Shown here piece by piece: positions 41,047 through 50,209 of a stretch of 53,233 nt of DNA (position 1 is its first letter; each line of letters begins with the position of its first letter). Under the pieces are notes generated by a model. That model searched no databases and had not been told where the DNA came from. It was given only the letters and a program-made list of their open reading frames with translations. Location: assembly GCA_945861025.1 (NCBI GenBank), contig CAMASN010000018.1:1-53233 (forward strand), read 5' to 3'. The translations under genes were made by a program, and so were the position numbers. This DNA comes from Ferrithrix thermotolerans DSM 19514. Lineage in GTDB: Bacteria; Actinomycetota; Acidimicrobiia; Acidimicrobiales; Ilumatobacteraceae.

Positions 41047-41100
41047 GGAAGTGGCGGCGTACGAGCCCCTCACGGGCGTGTACGCCGCCACTTCGCGTGC
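41047..41100. repeat. 54-bp palindromic repeat, copy 2
   Basis: A longer perfect inverted repeat than copy 1: GAAGTGGCGGCGTAC ... GTACGCCGCCACTTC (15-bp arms), with an inner GCCC/GGGC stem. It fills the gap between the convergent gldA and SDR genes, where it can act as a bidirectional terminator or 3'-end protector. It ends with the same CGCGTGC flank as copy 1, so the repeated unit extends beyond the palindrome on one side. Confidence 0.85.
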
Positions 41101-41113
41101 GGGATGGGCGTCG

Positions 41114-41860
41114 TTACACCTGACGGGCGTCGAGTTGGATTTCGGAGACGTCGATTTCGGGATGGTCGAGCATCGTTGCGAACGACGATGCCAGTGACAC
41201 GCCAACGTCGCTGGGCTCCATGAATCCGCCGGGCAATGCTTGCGTGCCCCAAATCTTGAGGGCCGCACCGAGACGCTCGAGGCCCATTTGGTTGACGAAC
41301 TCGGTGGGCTGCGCGTTGCCCATCATGATGCGCAAGAAGCGACGATCAGGATGCTCAACCTTCCATGTGCGGATGCACTGATTGAGCGCTGCTTTGGTGG
41401 CCGAATACGTAGCGAAGTGAGCGTTTGAGTCGAACACTGTGCGCGATGACACGAAGGCAATGAGGCCGTTGCGACCGACGTGATCGAGTGACGCAGCGGC
41501 GGCCAGATTGGCGCCGATGACATTGAGCTTGAATACATCGACCCATGTGTCGACATCGGTGTCTTTGAGTTCCTGCAGCACGCCGTAGCCGGCCATGTAC
41601 ACCATCACGTCGATGCCGCCCATGGCTTGCGCCGCTTGGGTGGCGACACGCTGAGCGTCGTCGGCCAGGGTGGCGTCGCCGGCGAAGGCGAATCCGCTAC
41701 CCATGCGTTGCACCAAGTCGTCGAGTCGATCGGCGCGCCGAGCCGACACAGCAACCGTGGCGCCGGCCTGAGCGCATGCCAACGCCAACGCTTCGCCAAG
41801 ACCCGACGACGCACCGATGACGAGAATGCGTCGCCCAGCAAGACGCTGGTGCGTGCTCAC
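41114..41860 (-). CDS. short-chain dehydrogenase/reductase
   Basis: 248 residues from a GTG overlapping the ALDH stop (GTGA). Rossmann nucleotide site ILVIGASSGLGEALA (TGxxxGxG-like, residues 13-27), Arg-containing VSARRADRL that favours NADP, active-site Ser138/Ser139, Tyr152 and Lys156 (YSATK). It should oxidise or reduce an alcohol/ketone pair; the substrate is unknown. Last gene of the tetR-SDR-ALDH-SDR operon. The N-terminal extension to 41986 lies in the ALDH gene and was excluded. Confidence 0.9.
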   Translation of the reverse strand: MSTHQRLAGRRILVIGASSGLGEALALACAQAGATVAVSARRADRLDDLVQRMGSGFAFAGDATLADDAQRVATQAAQAMGGIDVMVYMAGYGVLQELKDTDVDTWVDVFKLNVIGANLAAAASLDHVGRNGLIAFVSSRTVFDSNAHFATYSATKAALNQCIRTWKVEHPDRRFLRIMMGNAQPTEFVNQMGLERLGAALKIWGTQALPGGFMEPSDVGVSLASSFATMLDHPEIDVSEIQLDARQV

Positions 41861-43356
41861 GACTTGCTCGTGACTGGCTTCGCGAAGGCTCGTGTTTCGA
41901 GATACTCGCTGAAGCCGGCCATACCCATCTCGCGGCCGATGCCCGAGTGCTTGTAGCCCCCAAACGGCACATCGCACCCGTACCAAACGCCACCGTTGAC
42001 CGACATCGTGCCGGTGCGCACTCGGCGCGCCACTGACAATGCGCGGCCCTCGTCGGCCGAAACCACGGCGCCCGACAATCCGAACTCTGAGTCGTTAGCG
42101 ATAGCAACGGCGTGATCGTCGTCGTCGTATGCGATGGCAACCAACACTGGGCCGAAGATCTCTTCTTGGGCCACGCGCATGTCGTTGGTGACGTCGGCGA
42201 TGAGCGTTGGCTCGTAAAAGAAGCCGTCGGGCATGTGCTCGGGGCGCTTCCCACCACAAACAATCCGGGCGCCCTGCTCGATGGCGCTGGCCACGTATCC
42301 CTCGACGCGATCGCGCTGCGCTGCACTAATCAGTGGGCCCATCACGGTGCCCGCAGCTGTTGGATCGCCGGGCACGATGCCGGTCATCAACGCGGCGATT
42401 GCGGCGACACCCTCGTCGTAGCGACTACGCGGCAACAGCACCCGAGTGGTGAGGGCGCAACCCTGGCCACACACCATCGCCAATCCAAACACTGCGCCAA
42501 ACGAGGCGCCCGCAATGTCGTCGACGTCGTCGAGCACGATGCACGCAGACTTACCACCCAGCTCGAGAAACACCTTGGTGAGGTTGACGCTGGCATCGGC
42601 CATGATGCGCCGACCGGTGTCGGTTGAGCCGGTGAAGCTGATCATGTCGATGCGTGGATCGATCACGAGTTGACGACCAATCAACTTGTCGCTCGACGCA
42701 ACGATATTGATGACGCCCGCCGGGATGTCGGTGTGGTTGGCGATGAGACGCCCCAATGCCAACGCTCCCCATGGGGTCTCGACCGCCGGCTTGAGGATCA
42801 CAGTGCAGCCAGCCGCAAGCGCCGGCACGATCTTCGCCAAGTTGATTTGGGTGGGCACGTTCCACGGCGTGATTGCGGCGACGACACCGACGGCTTCTTG
42901 CTCGGTCCAACGCTCTGCGGGGCCGCCCATGGTGTTGGCTTCGCCGAGGCTGCTGGACCACTGAAAGTTGGCAGCGATGTCGGCGTAGTAGGGCAGGAAC
43001 TTCAAGGGCTCAACGACCTGAATGGTGTCGCACGCCATGCGCGGTGCACCAACCTCGGCCATGGTGATGTCGATGAGTTGCGGCAGATGATCGGCCAACG
43101 CCTGCTGAAGCTGGCGAATGCAGTGCACGCGGAACTCAACGTTGCGCGACCAATCGGTGGTGTCGAACGCAGTGCGTGCCGCCACGATTGCGGCCTCGAT
43201 GTCGTCGGTTGTGGCGTCGGGCGACACGCCGATGACCTGACCGGTAGCCGGGTTGACGTTGTCGTAGAAAGCGCCGTTTGAGGCGCCTCGCAACTCGCCA
43301 TTGATCAACAGCAGTTCTTGTACAGCTTGGTGTGTGTGGTTCATAGGAGTGTTCAT
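41857..43356 (-). CDS. aldehyde dehydrogenase (NAD(P)+-dependent)
   Basis: 499 residues from the ATG at 43356, sharing a base with the upstream SDR stop. It converts an aldehyde to a carboxylic acid. Seen: AAITPWNVPTQINLAKIVPAL, LKPAVETPWGAL, cofactor loop FTGSTDTGRRI, catalytic base Glu265 in FLELGGKSA, nucleophile Cys300 in GQGCALTTR, and EEIFGPVL and PFGGYKHSGIGREMG near the C-terminus. Typical length. It is between two SDR genes with overlapping ends, so the three enzymes are made together and probably act in sequence. Confidence 0.94.
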   Translation of the reverse strand: MNTPMNHTHQAVQELLLINGELRGASNGAFYDNVNPATGQVIGVSPDATTDDIEAAIVAARTAFDTTDWSRNVEFRVHCIRQLQQALADHLPQLIDITMAEVGAPRMACDTIQVVEPLKFLPYYADIAANFQWSSSLGEANTMGGPAERWTEQEAVGVVAAITPWNVPTQINLAKIVPALAAGCTVILKPAVETPWGALALGRLIANHTDIPAGVINIVASSDKLIGRQLVIDPRIDMISFTGSTDTGRRIMADASVNLTKVFLELGGKSACIVLDDVDDIAGASFGAVFGLAMVCGQGCALTTRVLLPRSRYDEGVAAIAALMTGIVPGDPTAAGTVMGPLISAAQRDRVEGYVASAIEQGARIVCGGKRPEHMPDGFFYEPTLIADVTNDMRVAQEEIFGPVLVAIAYDDDDHAVAIANDSEFGLSGAVVSADEGRALSVARRVRTGTMSVNGGVWYGCDVPFGGYKHSGIGREMGMAGFSEYLETRAFAKPVTSKS

Positions 43357-44129
43357 CAGATTCTCGTGATCTGTCCGCCGTCGACGGCAAGGATGTGGCC
43401 GGTAATCCATGCTGCTTCGTCAGACAGCAAGAAGAGCACTGGGCCTACATGATCTGCAGGCGTGCCCAAACGTTTAATGGCCAAGCTGGCCACCAGTGGA
43501 TCGCGAAACTCAAGCGGAACCTGCTTGGCCATCGCCTGCGTGTCGGTTGGCCCAGGTGCGATTGCGTTCACGCGGATCTTGCGGAACGCCAACTCGTGCG
43601 CCAGCGAACTGGTGAGGAAGTTGATGCCAGCTTTGGCGAGCCCATAGAACCCAGAGATACCCATCCACGATGCAGTAGATGACTGGTTCACGATGGAGCC
43701 GCCGCCACTTTTGCCCATCGGACGCATCACCGAACGGGTGCAATGCAACGCGCCCATCAGGTTCACGTTCATGAAGTGGTTGAGGTAGGCGTAATCGACG
43801 TTGGTCAGGCCAGCCATTTGCATGTCGCCGAAGATGGCTGCGTTGTTGACCAGATAATCGATGCGGCCGAATGACTCCATCACAGCGGCAGCCATGGCAT
43901 CGGTGCTCGCTGGATCGCCCACATCGGTGCGCACGAAAATCGCTCGATCGCCCAACGACTCGGCCACAGCGCGACCGGCTTCTTCATTGATCTCGGCGAC
44001 AACCACGCAGGCGCCCTCGGCGTGCAACGCGCGCACATAGGCCTCACCGATTCCGCCGCCGGATCCGGTGACGATGGCGGTGCGGCCCTCGAATCGTCGT
44101 CGCTGTACTGATGCTTCGGGTTGGTTCAT
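43356..44129 (-). CDS. short-chain dehydrogenase/reductase
   Basis: 257 residues from the ATG at 44129, overlapping the tetR stop (ATGA). Nucleotide-binding AIVTGSGGGIGEAYV (residues 18-32), Glu47 after the second strand (VAEINEE) suggesting NAD(H) preference, VNNAAIF, active-site Ser150, Tyr162 and Lys166 (YGLAK), and RVNAIAPGPTDT. Its C-terminal AVDGGQITRI is typical of classical SDRs. Likely the oxidation step before the aldehyde dehydrogenase, or oxidation of a ring alcohol made by the P450; substrate is inferred only. Confidence 0.91.
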   Translation of the reverse strand: MNQPEASVQRRRFEGRTAIVTGSGGGIGEAYVRALHAEGACVVVAEINEEAGRAVAESLGDRAIFVRTDVGDPASTDAMAAAVMESFGRIDYLVNNAAIFGDMQMAGLTNVDYAYLNHFMNVNLMGALHCTRSVMRPMGKSGGGSIVNQSSTASWMGISGFYGLAKAGINFLTSSLAHELAFRKIRVNAIAPGPTDTQAMAKQVPLEFRDPLVASLAIKRLGTPADHVGPVLFLLSDEAAWITGHILAVDGGQITRI

Positions 44130-44686
44130 TGACGTGCTCCTGTGACGAGTGCGCTGTATCCGAGACGCAGGTGGTGAATCTGTTTGTCCGCTGGCCAATC
44201 GAGTGGATTGAGAACCGCTTGCAAGGCGATGCCATCGACCAAGGCAATGAGGTGACGGCACGCATCGTGCAGGTCGCCCTCGACACGGCCAGCAAGCTGA
44301 CCCGGCAAGTAGCTGTTCCAGTGTTCGAGGATCATGCGGTCGAATCGACGCAGATCAGGGTCGAACATTGCCGAGGTGCGCACGCTGAATGCGAAGCGCC
44401 AGTTCTCGATGGTGACTGCATCGATTGGCAGCACGGCGGCGAGCACATCGAACACATCGGTGCTGCCGGGCATCTTCATCACGCGCGTCACGATGACAGC
44501 AGCGGCGTGGTCGAGCGCTGCTTCGGTGAGCTCGGCACGATCGGCGAAGTGATGCGACACGAGACCCGTGGTGGCTCCCAAGCGGCGAGCTACCGCACGC
44601 AAGCTGACGCCTTCCATGCCGCGCTCGGCGATGAGTTCGTAACTGGTCTTGGCCAGCTCGGCGCGGCGGTTGGGGCGGATAGGCAA
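44126..44686 (-). CDS. TetR-family transcriptional repressor
   Basis: 186 residues from a TTG at 44686. N-terminal helix-turn-helix (about residues 8-52: AKTSYELIAERGMEGVSLRA then GATTGLVSHHFADRAEL) and an all-helical ligand-binding C-terminus typical of TetR proteins. First gene of the operon, divergent from the P450 gene, with a nested palindrome in between. It therefore probably represses both operons and itself, and is released by a pathway substrate or product. The start is not firm: no Shine-Dalgarno sequence is present. Confidence 0.9.
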   Translation of the reverse strand: MPIRPNRRAELAKTSYELIAERGMEGVSLRAVARRLGATTGLVSHHFADRAELTEAALDHAAAVIVTRVMKMPGSTDVFDVLAAVLPIDAVTIENWRFAFSVRTSAMFDPDLRRFDRMILEHWNSYLPGQLAGRVEGDLHDACRHLIALVDGIALQAVLNPLDWPADKQIHHLRLGYSALVTGARQ

Positions 44687-44696
44687 GGTGACGATT

Positions 44697-44749
44697 CGGC
44701 GACTGTAGCTGAGATAACAGCTGTTGTCATCCTTGAGCTACAGTCGCCG
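44697..44749. promoter_or_regulatory. nested palindromic operator and divergent promoters, tetR/P450
   Basis: A perfect 14-bp inverted repeat CGGCGACTGTAGCT (44697-44710) / AGCTACAGTCGCCG (44736-44749) encloses a 25-nt spacer. The spacer contains a second palindrome GATAACAGCTGTTGTC (44713-44728, perfect core AACAGCTGTT), the size of a TetR operator. Each outer arm holds a TACAGT -10 box: plus strand 44739-44744, 6 nt before the P450 ATG, and minus strand 44702-44707 with ATGACA 17 nt upstream. One operator can thus control both directions. Confidence 0.75.
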
Positions 44750-44750
44750 C

Positions 44751-45956
44751 ATGCCCGCCGAAGTCACCTATAACCCGTATGCCTTTTCGGTTCACGACGA
44801 TCCGTACGTGACCTATCAACAACTGCGCGACGACGCCCCCGCATGGTGGAATCCCGAGCTCAAATTCTGGGTGCTCAGTCGATACGCCGACGTGCAACAA
44901 GCGTTTCGCGATCACGGCACGTTCTCGTCGATGGGCGGCGTGGCGCTCGAGAACCGACGGGCCATCACCACCAAAGATCTGTCGTTCCAACAGATGATCG
45001 AACTCGACCCACCCGAGCACACGGTGTTTCGTCGACTGGTGTCACGGGTGTTCACGCCCCGCCAAATGATGGCGATGGAAAACGACATCCGCTCCATCGT
45101 CGACGGATACATCGATCAAGTCATCGAGCGCGGCGAGGGCGACCTCGTCACCGATATCTCTGGGCCATTTCCGATGGATGTCATCTCCGCAATCCTTGGC
45201 ATTCCAGAGCAAGACCGCACATCGTTGCGCACGCACGCCGACAAGATTTTGATTCGCGAAGACGGCTCAATGGCGATGCCCAAAGAGGCCCTCGACGGCA
45301 TGTTTGGCTTGCTCGACTACTTCATCAAAGACCTCGCCGAACGACGCGAGCAGCAGCGCCCCGGATTGATCGCAGACCTGATGGGCGTTGAGGTCGAAGG
45401 GCGCATGCTCACCGAGACTGAGTTACTCGGATTTTGCGTTCTGTTCGTGATCGCCGGCCACGAGACCACGACCAAGATGGTTGCGAACGCAATCGAGATC
45501 TTGTCGCACCACAAAGACCAACGCGACCGACTCGTTGCAGATCCGTCGATGATCCCCGACGCACTCGAAGAAGTGCTGCGCTTCCACAACTCAACGCAAT
45601 ACATGCACCGCACGCTCACCACCGATATCGAACTGCACGGTCAGCAACTCAAAGAAGGCCAATCGGTGGTGTTGCTCATCGGCGCCGCCAACCACGACAA
45701 CCGCGAGTATGGCGACACTGCGCATCAGTTTCAGATCGACCGCAAAGCCGAGAAACACTTAGCGTTTGGCTACGGCTCGCACTTTTGTCTCGGCGCTGCG
45801 CTGGCCCGCATGGAAGGCAAGGTTGCGCTCGAGCAGATCCTCAGCCGCATGCCCGACATCGATGTCGATCACGAGCGCAAGGTGCGCTTCCATAGTTCAA
45901 ATGTCACCGGATGGACCAGCCTTCCCATCACGTTCACGCCTAGGGTTACGAAGTGA
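44751..45956 (+). CDS. cytochrome P450
   Basis: 401 residues from the ATG at 44751, 6 nt after TACAGT, hence probably leaderless. Soluble bacterial type without membrane anchor. Seen: I-helix oxygen-activation motif AGHETTTK, K-helix ExxR in ALEEVLRF, and heme-ligand loop FGYGSHFCLGAALARME with Cys346. It inserts one oxygen atom into a substrate C-H bond. No ferredoxin or ferredoxin reductase gene is in the window, so the redox partners come from elsewhere. First gene of the divergent operon; ends in a GTGA overlap with the next gene. Confidence 0.95.
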   Translation: MPAEVTYNPYAFSVHDDPYVTYQQLRDDAPAWWNPELKFWVLSRYADVQQAFRDHGTFSSMGGVALENRRAITTKDLSFQQMIELDPPEHTVFRRLVSRVFTPRQMMAMENDIRSIVDGYIDQVIERGEGDLVTDISGPFPMDVISAILGIPEQDRTSLRTHADKILIREDGSMAMPKEALDGMFGLLDYFIKDLAERREQQRPGLIADLMGVEVEGRMLTETELLGFCVLFVIAGHETTTKMVANAIEILSHHKDQRDRLVADPSMIPDALEEVLRFHNSTQYMHRTLTTDIELHGQQLKEGQSVVLLIGAANHDNREYGDTAHQFQIDRKAEKHLAFGYGSHFCLGAALARMEGKVALEQILSRMPDIDVDHERKVRFHSSNVTGWTSLPITFTPRVTK

Positions 45957-46831
45957 GCGAGGCAACGCAGCCGTCTCCTGTGCGGTTCGGCTACATCGGC
46001 CTCGGGCAGATGGGCTCGGCAATGGCCAGTCGGCTGCTCTCCACCGGCGCCACAGTCACGGTGTGCGATCTCGATGCGCAAGCAATGGCTGCGCTCGTCG
46101 AGCAAGGCGCCACGGCCGCGGTATCGCCCGCCGAACTCGCGCAGGTCTGCGACATCATCAGCATTTGTGTGCCAGCCGACGCCCACATTCGCCAAGTGCT
46201 CACCGGCGCGACTGGTGTGCAGCACGGGTGCAGCACAGGGCAGACAATTCTGATTCACAGCACGGTGTCGCCACAGACCATCACGTGGGCCCGCGAAACC
46301 GCCGCTGCGTGGGGTGTCCACCTATTCGATGCATGCGTGGCCGGCGGCGGCGATGCCGCAAAGGTCGGCGAGCTCGTGATCTTGGCTGGCGGTGTCAGCG
46401 AGATGAGCCAGCCCGTGATCGATGCACTCAACACCTATGGATCATTGGTCATCGATGGCGGGCCGGTGGGTTCGGGTGCCGCGCTAAAGATCGGCGTGAA
46501 CACGATGACCTACGCGCAGTTTGCTGCGGCATCGTCGGCATTCGACATGGTGAAAACCAACGGCGGCAATCCGCAAGCACTTATGCAGGCATGGCGCCAC
46601 ACCGGCCAACTCGGCAAGCTCACCGAGTCGTTCACGGGCTTGCTCGGCATTCCTCCAGCGCATATTCGCGGCGCGTTTCGTGACTCACTGCTGAACACCG
46701 TCTCGATCGCCACCAAAGATCTTGAGCTCGCCGAAGAGCTGATGAACAACGCCGACCCTCGGCACGCGATGATCACATCGCTACGCGAATCAATGACCGC
46801 TGTCTTCGGACTCGAAGAGAACAACCAGTAA
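45953..46831 (+). CDS. beta-hydroxyacid dehydrogenase (3-hydroxyisobutyrate dehydrogenase-like)
   Basis: 292 residues from a GTG overlapping the P450 stop. Rossmann start VRFGYIGLGQMGSAMASRL, Asp in VCDLDAQ indicating NAD(H), substrate-binding DACVAGGGDAAKVGEL and catalytic Lys in ALKIGVNTMTYA place it in the 6-phosphogluconate/3-hydroxyisobutyrate dehydrogenase superfamily. The exact substrate is unknown; with P450, SDR and ALDH genes nearby a hydroxy acid intermediate is plausible. It is followed 13 nt later by a carboxymuconolactone decarboxylase-like gene. Confidence 0.88.
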   Translation: MSEATQPSPVRFGYIGLGQMGSAMASRLLSTGATVTVCDLDAQAMAALVEQGATAAVSPAELAQVCDIISICVPADAHIRQVLTGATGVQHGCSTGQTILIHSTVSPQTITWARETAAAWGVHLFDACVAGGGDAAKVGELVILAGGVSEMSQPVIDALNTYGSLVIDGGPVGSGAALKIGVNTMTYAQFAAASSAFDMVKTNGGNPQALMQAWRHTGQLGKLTESFTGLLGIPPAHIRGAFRDSLLNTVSIATKDLELAEELMNNADPRHAMITSLRESMTAVFGLEENNQ

Positions 46832-46844
46832 CGAAAGAGACCTC

Positions 46845-47252
46845 ATGTCTGAGTCCACGCCTGACCCCCAGCAACAAAGCGCCTACGAACGTGGCGCCAC
46901 AAAAATGGCCGAGGTATACGCCGGCGATGTTGTGATCCTCCCCGAGGGGGCGATGCCTTTCAACGACGTGATGATGCGTACGTTGTTCGGCGAGATGTGG
47001 GCCCGCGATGTGCTGTCGGTCAGAGATCGGCGACTGCTGCTCATGGGTGTCATCGCCGCCAGCGGCTCGGTCGATGTGTGGAAGATTCAGGCACGCGCCG
47101 CGCTGAAGAACGGCGAACTCTCCCCCGCCGAACTACGCGAGACCCTCATCACGCTTGCCCCCTACGCCGGTTACCCGCGAGTTGCCGGCTTAGTGGTCGA
47201 ATGCGAAGGCGTCATCGCCAAGTGGAACAAAGAGCAGCAAGCCCCCGGCTAG
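46845..47252 (+). CDS. carboxymuconolactone decarboxylase family protein
   Basis: 135 residues; GAAAGAG precedes the ATG. The helical CMD fold is shown by MMRTLFGEMWARDVLSVRDRRLLLMGVIAAS, AALKNGELSPAELRETLITLAPYAGYPRVAG. The CxxC of AhpD-type peroxidase members is absent, so it is on the decarboxylase or lactone-acting side of the family. Members are common in catabolic clusters for aromatic and cyclic compounds. Its place after P450 and hydroxyacid dehydrogenase suggests a late pathway step (inference). Confidence 0.87.
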   Translation: MSESTPDPQQQSAYERGATKMAEVYAGDVVILPEGAMPFNDVMMRTLFGEMWARDVLSVRDRRLLLMGVIAASGSVDVWKIQARAALKNGELSPAELRETLITLAPYAGYPRVAGLVVECEGVIAKWNKEQQAPG

Positions 47253-47332
47253 AACGCTGGCGCCTTGCATCACGTCTCGCCGTCGACGTTGTGCCCTTCC
47301 CAGCCCGGCAGAAATATGAGAAAGTTTGCGCC

Positions 47333-50209
47333 GTGAGCATCTCGGTTCTGGGCCGCGTACGACTGCGCGGACAAGATATTGCATCATCGCGACAGCGCCA
47401 GCTCGTCGCCGCGCTTGTGCTGCACCGCGGGTCCGACATTTCGAGCGGGCGGCTCGCTGAATACATCTGGGGCACGAAGCAACCAGCAGACCCAGGCGCC
47501 GCGCTACACACGCTGGTTTCGCGTGTTCGCACGATGCTGCCCGATACCGCAATCATCGAATCGTTGCGAGGTAGTTACCGACTCGTTGCCGCAACTGGCG
47601 TGATCGACATCGACCGAGTGCTTCATTGGCGAGCCGCAATCGCTAATCTCAGAACCGCAGATCAGCCAGCCGCGATCGACGGGTTCCTCGCGTTGTATAC
47701 GGGCGAACCATTCGTCGACCTTGATGACATCGACACCATCGCGGCACGAGAGCAGGCCCTCGAAATTCGAGTGGGCTTACTTGAAGCTCGAGCCGAATCA
47801 GCGATCTTGGCCGGGAATGCCGACGCCGCAATCATCACGCTGCGCGAAGTTCTCATCGAGCGACCCGACCGCGAATCGTCCGCAGCGTTGCTGATGGAAA
47901 CGCTGTACCGCAGCGGTCGGCAGCCCGAAGCACTGGCCGTATACGCCACCCTGCGCGAGCACCTGCTCAACGAATTCGGAGTGGATCCAACGCCTCGGCT
48001 GTCCGAGCTAGAAGTCGCGATTCTGCGCCACGACCTCACGCCCATGGCGCCTCCCGCTGACGCGCCGAGGAGCGGCCGCCGAGCCACGATGCCGCATCGG
48101 GCGAGCAGCTTTGTGGGCCGCGGCCACGACGTAGACGGACTGGCTGCATTGCTCACCCGGGTCAGGTTCGTCACCGTGCTTGGCCCAGGCGGCATCGGCA
48201 AAACCAGCCTCGCCTCTGAGGTCGCAACGAAAGTAGAGGGCGCCGGCACCCGTGTCGTTGTGGCTGAACTCGCCGACATCGCTGAGGGTACCGACCTTGC
48301 TGCAGCGGTTGCTGGTCGAATCGGAGCCCCAACCCAAGCCACAGAGTCGCCGCAGGATCCCCTTGCCCACTACCTCGCTAGCGCTCCCACTCTGCTGTAC
48401 CTAGACAACTGCGAGCATCTCCTTGAGAGCGTGGCCGATCTCATCGCAACCCTGCTGGGGAGGTCACCCACACTGCGCATCCTCGCAACCAGCAGAGAAC
48501 CGATCGGCGCCGAGGGCGAGCACCGCTGGGTGATTCACGGCCTGCCAATAGCCGACGCCGAGCAGTTGTTCGCAGACCGAGCAGGTGCTGCACGTGCGGA
48601 AACAGAGTCGTTGCGCGGCGACGCACGCGTTCGGTTGCTGTGCGAACGACTTGATGGCGTTCCGCTAGCACTTGAACTCGCAGCCCGGGCATTGGCCTAT
48701 ATGTCCCTCGACGAGATCATCAGTGGTCTCGACAATCGATTCGAACTACTCAACCGCAACCGACGCTCTGCTCCCGATCGCCATCAGAGTCTGGAGGCAA
48801 CTCTCGATTGGTCGTACCAACGACTGCAACCGTTCGAGCAGGAGGCCTTCGATCGGCTGGGGGTGTTTGCCGGAAGTTTCAGCGCCGCAGATGCGCGTCA
48901 ATTGGTTGGACCGCATGTTGCCGATGTCATTGCGACTCTGGTCGACCGATCGCTGGTGGTTGTCGATCCTCTCGCAAGTCCGGCCCGATACGAACTGCTC
49001 GAGACGATGCGCGCATACGCCCGACGCAATCGGGGCGATCAGCTCGACATCGATCGGTCCGCGCTCGCCCTCTTCGTACTGGACTATGCCATTACGGCCT
49101 CGGCACACACGACGGGGCCCGATGAGTCGAAGTGGTTCAACGACCTTCGAGCGAGCATGGCCAACCTCCGACAGGCGTACCAATACTTCGTCGAGACGCG
49201 CAACGACAACCACCGCGTGCGCCTCGTCGCTGCGCTCGCCATGTGGGCATGGCAGTGCGACCAAGCCGAAGTTCTGGCGTGGGCGTTGGAGACCGAACTC
49301 GAAGTATCCGTTTCCGACCCTGAACTTGCGGCGTACGCATTTGCCGCTGCAACCATCACCCGATCTCGATCGAATGAATTGCTCGAAGGTGCCGACACAG
49401 CACAGCGAGCCGCGATCGTCACGCAATCAACAGGCGGCGTGGCAGCAGCGCTGAGTTTCTACGCTGCGGCCGAAGTCGGGCTGTTTCGCGGCGAGTTCAG
49501 CTCGGCCGAACAGTCGGCGCTTCGCGCCCACAGCTTCGGCGTGGCTGCAGGCAACGCCCCGGGGGCGCGGGCCGCCACCTTCTTCGCAGCTATTGATGCG
49601 GCGTTAGCGATCATCTATTCGGGCCGCTCCGCAGAGGCCGGAATCTGGATCGACACAGCTCATCGTTTGGCAATCGAACTTCACAGCGCGGGCGCTCATG
49701 CTTGGGTCGAATTCACTCAGGCCGACGCGGCATTCAGCAGTGGAGACATCGACCGAGCGCTCGAAAATATGAACCGTTGCGTCGCTCTGATCGACGGGTC
49801 ACAACACTCGTTCCTAGCCGGCGTGGCCGACCTCTCGCTTGTGGCGCTCGCTTCGGCGCAGAACGGCCTGAAGCCCGGAACCGTCCGGCGCGACCTGCTC
49901 TTGTCGGTCTTTGAGCGCTGGCAAACCACCATGTCGTGGGCCCAGGCAACGCTCGGCCTGCGCCTGCTCGCTGCGGCGTTGGCAGCCGAGGGGCAAAGCC
50001 TCAACGCTGCAGTGATAATGGGCGCGTTTTTCGCCTCGGCCGTAGACCCCAGCGACGCGCGAATCCAAACGGCGGAGACGTTGTCACGGTTGAGCGCCGA
50101 CCTGTCCGACGTAGAACTGCAGCGCTTGCTTGCCCAAGGAGGGGCCATGTCGCTTCACGACGCTGTGCAGCATGCGATCGAGATTCTGACCGACTCGCTA
50201 CCCGGCTAA
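47333..50209 (+). CDS. AfsR/SARP-type regulator with BTAD and NB-ARC domains
   Basis: 958 residues from the GTG at 47333; the open frame runs back to 46997 but overlaps the preceding gene. N-terminal OmpR-type winged helix (about 1-85: SSRQRQLVAALVLHRG, ALHTLVSRVRTMLP), bacterial transcriptional activation domain (about 95-240: RAEDS-like helices ending EALAVYATLREHLLNEFG), NB-ARC ATPase with Walker A LGPGGIGKTSL near 283 and LLYLDNCEHLL near 353, then a long helical, TPR-like C-terminus. Such proteins activate secondary-metabolite or catabolic genes. It is in the same direction as the P450 operon, 80 nt after it. Confidence 0.9.
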   Translation: MSISVLGRVRLRGQDIASSRQRQLVAALVLHRGSDISSGRLAEYIWGTKQPADPGAALHTLVSRVRTMLPDTAIIESLRGSYRLVAATGVIDIDRVLHWRAAIANLRTADQPAAIDGFLALYTGEPFVDLDDIDTIAAREQALEIRVGLLEARAESAILAGNADAAIITLREVLIERPDRESSAALLMETLYRSGRQPEALAVYATLREHLLNEFGVDPTPRLSELEVAILRHDLTPMAPPADAPRSGRRATMPHRASSFVGRGHDVDGLAALLTRVRFVTVLGPGGIGKTSLASEVATKVEGAGTRVVVAELADIAEGTDLAAAVAGRIGAPTQATESPQDPLAHYLASAPTLLYLDNCEHLLESVADLIATLLGRSPTLRILATSREPIGAEGEHRWVIHGLPIADAEQLFADRAGAARAETESLRGDARVRLLCERLDGVPLALELAARALAYMSLDEIISGLDNRFELLNRNRRSAPDRHQSLEATLDWSYQRLQPFEQEAFDRLGVFAGSFSAADARQLVGPHVADVIATLVDRSLVVVDPLASPARYELLETMRAYARRNRGDQLDIDRSALALFVLDYAITASAHTTGPDESKWFNDLRASMANLRQAYQYFVETRNDNHRVRLVAALAMWAWQCDQAEVLAWALETELEVSVSDPELAAYAFAAATITRSRSNELLEGADTAQRAAIVTQSTGGVAAALSFYAAAEVGLFRGEFSSAEQSALRAHSFGVAAGNAPGARAATFFAAIDAALAIIYSGRSAEAGIWIDTAHRLAIELHSAGAHAWVEFTQADAAFSSGDIDRALENMNRCVALIDGSQHSFLAGVADLSLVALASAQNGLKPGTVRRDLLLSVFERWQTTMSWAQATLGLRLLAAALAAEGQSLNAAVIMGAFFASAVDPSDARIQTAETLSRLSADLSDVELQRLLAQGGAMSLHDAVQHAIEILTDSLPG

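What the first reader, a model, noticed from the sequence alone, without database searches (positions are those of the whole stretch)
44697..44749. Mirror-image divergent promoters with a TetR-type operator at the centre
A perfect 14-bp inverted repeat carries a TACAGT -10 box for each direction, and a second palindrome (GATAACAGCTGTTGTC) is centred between them. The arrangement gives one 53-bp switch controlling P450 and tetR operons, and the arms could also pair in the mRNA.
Basis: partly seen in the sequence, partly recalled or inferred. Interest (0 to 1): 0.65.

Follow-up and report, generated by a model that had tools for sequence, protein, structure and literature searches.

The report
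Leaderless P450/TetR switch, odd start codon
A short stretch of DNA probably works as a two-way switch between an enzyme gene and its own repressor gene, and the repressor appears to be translated from AUC at the very end of its message, a codon that bacteria are not thought to start from in that position.

Summary
In detail: a perfect 14-bp inverted repeat (44697-44710/44736-44749), each arm with a TACAGT -10 box, encloses a TetR-type palindrome between divergent P450 and tetR genes. What is conserved is not the perfect repeat but a 17-bp block, ATNACANCTGTTGTNAT (44714-44730), at all five tetR orthologs found (four lineages, one with a mismatch), and at an extra catabolic promoter in one genome. 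The arms are two copies of a leaderless-type promoter: TACAGT lies 6 bp before the P450 ATG. Both predicted mRNAs start outside the arms, so the proposed mRNA hairpin is unlikely.

The unexpected part is the tetR start. At the mirror-image place stands ATC. In four of five orthologs (three of four lineages) it is the only start-like codon ahead of the DNA-binding domain with a TANNNT box 5-8 bp upstream. The 96%-identical relative lacks the window's TTG, and one ortholog has no ATG/GTG/TTG before that domain. Distant TetR relatives have ATG/GTG there. Mycobacterial reporters used ATC as the non-initiating control. Best reading: one operator, two leaderless promoters, and a weak AUC start keeping repressor output low. 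Binding, transcription starts and AUC use are inferred.

The parts
44697..44710 (.). left arm of the perfect 14-bp inverted repeat: tetR -10 box plus discriminator, read on the - strand
44736..44749 (.). right arm of the inverted repeat: P450 -10 box plus discriminator, read on the + strand
44714..44730 (.). putative TetR operator ATAACAGCTGTTGTCAT, conserved block ATNACANCTGTTGTNAT
44739..44744 (+). P450 -10 box TACAGT, 6 bp before the ATG
44702..44707 (-). tetR -10 box TACAGT, 6 bp before the ATC
44725..44730 (-). tetR -35-like ATGACA (17-bp spacer), lying in the right half of the operator block
44693..44695 (-). ATC, proposed leaderless start codon of tetR
44684..44686 (-). TTG that the ORF list takes as the tetR start; TCG in the 96%-identical relative
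44126..44695 (-). tetR (PF00440 + PF13977, BetI-type C-terminal domain), from the proposed ATC to the stop
44751..45956 (+). cytochrome P450 (best solved relatives by sequence: reconstructed CYP125, CYP130), leaderless-type ATG start
45953..46831 (+). 3-hydroxyisobutyrate dehydrogenase-like gene (PF03446), overlaps the P450 stop
46845..47252 (+). carboxymuconolactone decarboxylase-family gene (PF02627)
43356..44129 (-). SDR oxidoreductase; its ATG overlaps the tetR stop (ATGA)
41857..43359 (-). aldehyde dehydrogenase of the tetR side (start approximate)

Best explanation
A TetR-family repressor (BetI-type C-terminal domain) and a P450 catabolic operon are read divergently from two leaderless promoters placed as mirror images around one TetR operator. 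The operator lies in the -35/spacer region of both promoters, so a bound dimer should shut both off (autorepression plus repression of the P450 operon), and a ligand of the pathway should release it. Each mRNA starts at its start codon: ATG (44751) for the P450, ATC (44695) for tetR. With near-identical promoters, the third base of the start codon would set the output ratio: strong AUG for the enzyme, weak AUC for the repressor. Shown by sequence: promoter geometry, conserved operator block, conserved ATC at the leaderless position. Inferred: binding, transcription starts, initiation at AUC, and its purpose.
For: Leaderless geometry is a real class in this genome: in 624 called ORFs of 808 kb, TANNNT lies 6 or 7 bp before in-frame ATG in 40 and 30 per 1000 codons (14-15 at 8-9 bp, 8 at 10 bp, 0-5 at the other distances) and before GTG in 12 and 14 per 1000; PMC3160421 (passages) gives TANNNT about 12 bp upstream as the mark of leaderless genes. 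Operator: the pattern ATNACANNTGTTGTNAT without mismatch occurs 1, 1, 1 and 3 times in the four genomes searched, five of these six places at the locus and the sixth before a MaoC-like gene with leaderless spacing. A fifth genome (G943), found by tetR homology only, has it with 1 mismatch. ATC: in window, L003, L012 and L013 the only start-like codon in the frame with TANNNT 5-8 bp upstream is ATC (d=6, 6, 6, 5); L013 has no ATG/GTG/TTG before codon 89, past the HTH; in L003 the first is codon 40. Window and L003 tetR differ by 13 synonymous and 2 nonsynonymous codons, both of the latter in the tail right after the ATC; one turns the TTG into TCG. The residues between ATC and HTH are not conserved, the ATC is. 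In 12 distant TetR relatives the start is ATG or GTG, 8-9 residues before the RR motif by eye, with TANNNT 6-9 bp upstream in 11 of 12; in window and L003 the ATC lies 9 residues before that motif.
Against: In M. smegmatis reporters only ATG and GTG started leaderless translation, and ATC was the negative control (PMC4633059, abstract and passages). ATC shows no enrichment behind TANNNT in this genome (3.3 and 1.6 per 1000 at d=6, 7: background), so it is not a general start here. The window has a TTG 9 nt downstream, and L012 has an in-frame GTG 24 nt upstream and a TTG further down. The fourth lineage (L038/G943) has in-frame ATGs and no leaderless ATC. In L012 and L013 the ATC lies 18 and 11 residues before the RR motif, not 8-9. 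Only three independent lineages carry the ATC. The operator-to--10 distance varies: 8 bp on the P450 side in the window but 1 bp in L012, L013, L038; 6, 17, 4 and 6 bp on the tetR side (window, L012, L013, L038). In L012 the CMD promoter across from tetR is not leaderless. No expression or binding data exist.
Confidence: 0.62

Rival explanations
1. Ordinary divergent TetR switch; tetR starts at the TTG (44686) with a 9-nt leader, and ATC is incidental.
For: TTG is a standard start codon and the ORF list takes it.
Against: TCG in the 96%-identical relative, whose tetR is otherwise under purifying selection (13 synonymous, 2 nonsynonymous codons); no ATG, GTG or TTG between ATC and the domain start in L013, and none there in L012 before codon 32; a 9-nt leader leaves little room for a Shine-Dalgarno site (inference).
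Confidence: 0.15
2. tetR is made from a leadered mRNA, starting at a near-cognate codon further downstream (CTG or TTG at the start of helix 1) or upstream (GTG in L012).
For: CTG at codon 27 in window and L003, TTG at codon 32 and GTG at codon 2 in L012.
Against: No such codon is shared: the matching place in L013 is CTC (sequence). None has a TANNNT box at 5-8 bp. A helix-1 start would cut off the conserved RRAE part.
Confidence: 0.12
3. The perfect 14-bp repeat is itself the regulatory element: a second operator pair, a DNA cruciform or an mRNA hairpin.
For: Folded as RNA, 44694-44752 gives -32.3 kcal/mol, z -6.1.
Against: One base differs in L003, and L012, L013 and L038 keep little beyond TANNNT and a GC-rich discriminator. 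Both predicted mRNAs start outside the arms.
Confidence: 0.07

Closest known systems
Divergent TetR-family autoregulatory switches (for example TetR/TetA, BM3R1/P450 BM-3; recalled, from no call)
   Same: TetR repressor divergent from the gene it controls, palindromic operator in the shared promoter region
   Different: both promoters predicted leaderless; an operator block of its own; conserved ATC at the start of the repressor
Actinobacterial leaderless (TA-led) genes (PMC3160421, PMC4633059, PMC9094748: passages read; PMC3898074: search listing only)
   Same: TANNNT about 12 bp upstream of the start codon; mRNA begins with the start codon
   Different: tetR has ATC where known leaderless mRNAs have ATG or GTG
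KstR/KstR2 regulators of steroid catabolism
   Same: TetR family, weak match to KstR2 (4w97, E 7.8e-5); targets here include a P450 whose best solved relatives are CYP125/130 types
   Different: 21 other chain sequences score better than KstR2; the block does not fit the KstR motif TNNAACNNGTTNNA (recalled)
Bidirectional bacterial promoters with symmetric DNA (PMC12825309, PMC10268837: search listing and start of abstract)
   Same: divergent transcription from near-symmetric sequence
   Different: here two separate -10 boxes with 31 bp between them, not one shared symmetric core

Membership tests
TetR family | PF00440 HTH domain above cut-off | tested here: met
   41.1 bits vs 24
BetI (choline-responsive repressor) | NCBIfam equivalog score for BetI | tested here: not met
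   56.8 bits vs cut-off 201.3; the BetI-type C-terminal Pfam domain does match (39.7 vs 27)
Divergent TetR autoregulatory switch | repressor gene divergent from target, palindrome between the start codons | tested here: met
   window, L003, L013, L038; in L012 tetR is divergent from the CMD gene instead and the P450 has its own copy of the block
Divergent TetR autoregulatory switch | repressor binds the operator and is released by a ligand | not testable with these tools
   sequence only
Leaderless gene (P450) | TANNNT about 6-7 bp before ATG/GTG | tested here: met
   window, L003, L012, L013, L038; genome-wide peak at this distance; the 5' end itself was not measured
Leaderless gene (tetR) | TANNNT at the leaderless distance from the proposed start | tested here: met
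   d=6, 6, 6, 5 before ATC in 4 of 5 orthologs; not in L038
[quoted passage not shown]
   ATC in 4 of 5 orthologs; in L038 a GTG at d=7 that is out of the tetR frame
KstR/KstR2 | close sequence relation to KstR2 | tested here: not met
   KstR2 only at E 7.8e-5, behind 21 other chain sequences

The most novel reading that the evidence does not exclude
Leaderless translation in Acidimicrobiia can start at AUC, and a repressor gene has kept this weak leaderless start across at least three families as a translational brake: two mirror-image promoters share one operator, and the last base of the start codon (ATG vs ATC) sets the ratio of enzyme to repressor. In the fourth lineage a different device may do the same job: a leaderless-type GTG upstream ORF overlapping the tetR start.
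Probability: 0.5. Interest if true: 0.75.

Novelty: new variant of a known kind. Interest (0 to 1): 0.5.

Why it matters
The switch itself is a familiar type. A conserved AUC at the 5' end of a leaderless message would contradict the rule drawn from mycobacterial reporters that only AUG or GUG starts leaderless translation, and would show start-codon identity used as a heritable expression dial in a regulator. It would also mean that gene callers mis-start or truncate such repressors. It is directly testable with a reporter.

Tried and rejected
Perfect repeat as a genome-wide motif: the 13-mer of the arm occurs without mismatch only twice in the genome, both here, and three times with one mismatch (those three were not examined further). 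Operator as regulon motif in the own genome: one site only, up to 1 mismatch. AUC/AUU/AUA starts as a general class: codons of these kinds with TANNNT at 5-7 bp in the called ORFs of 808 kb were listed (15 rows) and none is compelling by eye; the window's tetR itself is not in that list, probably because the greedy ORF caller dropped it. An earlier count said that L012 has no ATG/GTG/TTG before the HTH; one search shows a GTG at codon 2 and a TTG at codon 32, and the report follows. More orthologs: searches of 200, 395, 14, 12, 396, 397, 58, 1 and 221 genomes, partly overlapping, and of genome contigs (3 loci) gave five loci in all (window, G068, G373, G379, G943); viral contigs gave none; plasmids only distant relatives, all 45 records under 60% identity. 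Literature: 'leaderless' + 'AUC start codon' 0 papers; 'ATC start codon' + bacteria 3, none on leaderless mRNAs by title; some searches listed 20 of 42, 12 of 17, 10 of 13 and 12 of 36 papers, and only the listed rows were seen. No report of a natural leaderless AUC start was seen in these searches of the held open-access library.

Full report
Observation. The repeat is there as described: CGGCGACTGTAGCT at 44697-44710 and its perfect reverse complement at 44736-44749, with TACAGT on each strand. In 808 kb of the genome (window plus 40 fetched stretches) there are 15 distinct perfect repeats with arms of 14 or more and gaps of 3-60, and 0 in each of three simulated sequences. Of the other 14, 12 belong by eye to four recurring families, which this one does not. 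The 16-bp palindrome is at 44713-44728, one of 8 pairs mismatched, 2.5 bp off the common centre.

Genes. On the + strand: P450 (44751-45956), a 3-hydroxyisobutyrate dehydrogenase-like gene and a CMD-family gene. On the - strand: tetR, SDR, aldehyde dehydrogenase, SDR. P450 and dehydrogenase overlap by GTGA, tetR and SDR by ATGA, as in tight operons. The P450's best solved relatives by sequence are a reconstructed CYP125 and CYP130; its substrate cannot be named from this.

Relatives. TetR orthologs were found in four other genomes. G068 is of the same genus (contig length equal to that of JAPKZR010000277.1, a Lake Pavin MAG; 96.3% identical over 3408 bp of the locus). G943 is of another family of the same order. 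TetR identity to the window is 99, 58, 43 and 53%, P450 identity 99, 67, 66 and 64% (order L003, L012, L013, L038). The pair is divergent in L003, L013 and L038. In L012 the P450 and tetR are convergent, tetR is divergent from the CMD gene, and the P450 is divergent from a second P450.

Operator. A block ATNACANCTGTTGTNAT recurs: ATAACAGCTGTTGTCAT (window, L003), ATAACACCTGTTGTGAT and ATCACACCTGTTGTGAT (both L012), ATCACATCTGTTGTCAT (L013), ATAACACCTGTTGTCAG (L038, one mismatch, not used to make the pattern). A search of four genomes with ATNACANNTGTTGTNAT gave exact matches 1, 1, 1 and 3 (G000, G068, G379, G373); with one mismatch allowed there was one more each in G068 and G373, and the reversed-pattern control gave 0 in all four. 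The third exact site of G373 stands before a MaoC/FAS1-dehydratase-type gene followed by MaoC-like and thiolase-like genes, with TAGGTT 6 bp before its ATG. So this TetR may control a small catabolic regulon in that genome, and only its own locus in the window's genome. The pattern was built from these loci, so the counts measure specificity, not discovery.

Leaderless promoters. In 624 called ORFs, TANNNT peaks 6 and 7 bp before in-frame ATG (40 and 30 per 1000 codons; 14 and 15 at 8 and 9 bp, 8 at 10 bp, 0-5 at the other distances) and GTG (12 and 14; 8 and 6.5 at 8 and 9 bp; 0-4 elsewhere); ATC shows 3.3 and 1.6 at 6 and 7 bp, which is background. The P450 promoters fit: TACAGT-6-ATG (window, L003), TACCGT-6-ATG (L012), TAGGGT-7-GTG (L013), TAGGTT-7-ATG (L038). 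The tetR promoter of the window is the only sigma-70 consensus-type promoter found in 44600-44850, ATGACA-17-TACAGT, its -35 lying inside the operator block. The arms of the repeat are therefore best read as -10 box plus discriminator of two leaderless promoters. In L003 one base of the right arm differs, and the other relatives keep little beyond TANNNT and a GC-rich discriminator. Because both predicted mRNAs start just outside the arms, neither contains them, although the stretch would fold well if transcribed (-32.3 kcal/mol, z -6.1). The distance from block to -10 box varies: on the P450 side 8 bp in the window and 1 bp in L012, L013 and L038; on the tetR side 6, 17, 4 and 6 bp (window, L012, L013, L038).

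The start of tetR. The mirror image of the P450 ATG is ATC (44695-44693). Reading the tetR frame from its upstream stop, codons counted from 0: window, ATC at codon 14, TTG at 17, then ATG at 40; L003, ATC at 14 and nothing canonical before codon 40; L012, GTG at 2, ATC at 10, TTG at 32; L013, ATC at 20 and no ATG/GTG/TTG before codon 89, which is past the helix-turn-helix. In all four the only start-like codon with TANNNT 5-8 bp upstream is the ATC (TACAGT d6, TACAGT d6, TACGGT d6, TAGCCT d5; in L013 the same TAGCCT is also 8 bp before the next codon, GCA). Window and L003 tetR differ in 13 synonymous and 2 nonsynonymous codons; both nonsynonymous ones are in the tail just after the ATC, and one of them is the TTG itself. 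Between ATC and HTH the tails differ in length and sequence among lineages. Twelve distant TetR relatives (11 from the class, order and phylum searches, one from the own genome; three further loci are second copies of the same genes and were left out) begin with ATG or GTG 6-9 residues before the matched region; 11 of 12 have TANNNT 6-9 bp upstream, L014 has none. By eye these starts lie 8-9 residues before the RR motif; the ATC lies 9 residues before it in window and L003, 18 in L012 and 11 in L013. The ATC thus stands where relatives have their leaderless-type ATG or GTG. The exception among orthologs is L038: in-frame ATGs, and a -10-like TAGCTT 7 bp before an out-of-frame GTG that opens a 32-codon ORF ending inside the tetR start region.

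What is known. TANNNT about 12 bp upstream marks leaderless genes, more than 20% of genes in Actinobacteria (PMC3160421, passages). [quoted passage not shown] AUC, AUU and AUA are named as rare starts in bacteria generally (PMC9094748, passages). Natural leaderless AUC starts were not seen in the searches.

Verdict. An ordinary kind of switch (TetR, divergent, presumably autoregulated) with an unusual and conserved detail. Confidence in the whole reading is 0.62; the AUC start is the weaker half and carries most of the doubt. Three lineages are few, and nothing has been measured.

Noticed in passing
L046 18813-18833 (G000:C1): Two divergent ORFs whose ATG and GTG are 19 bp apart appear to share one palindromic -10 core (TACTGTA), each at the leaderless distance; L080 13583-13610 is a similar pair with overlapping -10 boxes.
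   Followed up: partly
L050, L059, L063, L070, L084; L049, L059, L065; L083 and window 41048-41094; L063 and L070: Recurring perfect palindromes (GTTTGTTGAAGACA, GCATGGGCGCGAT, GAAGTGGCGGCG, AAAGC..AGCGCACG-like) scattered in the genome, like REP elements; one copy lies between convergent genes of the window.
   Followed up: no
L038 (G943:C119), upstream of tetR: A -10-like box 7 bp before a GTG that opens a 32-codon ORF in another frame, overlapping the tetR start region and containing short repeats: possible leaderless upstream ORF, or a frameshift in the assembly.
   Followed up: partly
L088 (G373:C222) 336-352: Third exact copy of the operator block in G373, before a MaoC/FAS1-dehydratase, MaoC-like, thiolase-like cluster next to the end of an AMP-binding (acyl-CoA synthetase-like) gene: hints at a CoA-ester catabolic regulon.
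   Followed up: partly
L086 5422-6786 (G373:C84): A second P450 divergent from the first one across an operator copy.
   Followed up: no
window 47210-50209: Large regulator with BTAD and NB-ARC/AAA domains (AfsR-like, below the NCBIfam cut-off) directly downstream of the CMD gene.
   Followed up: no
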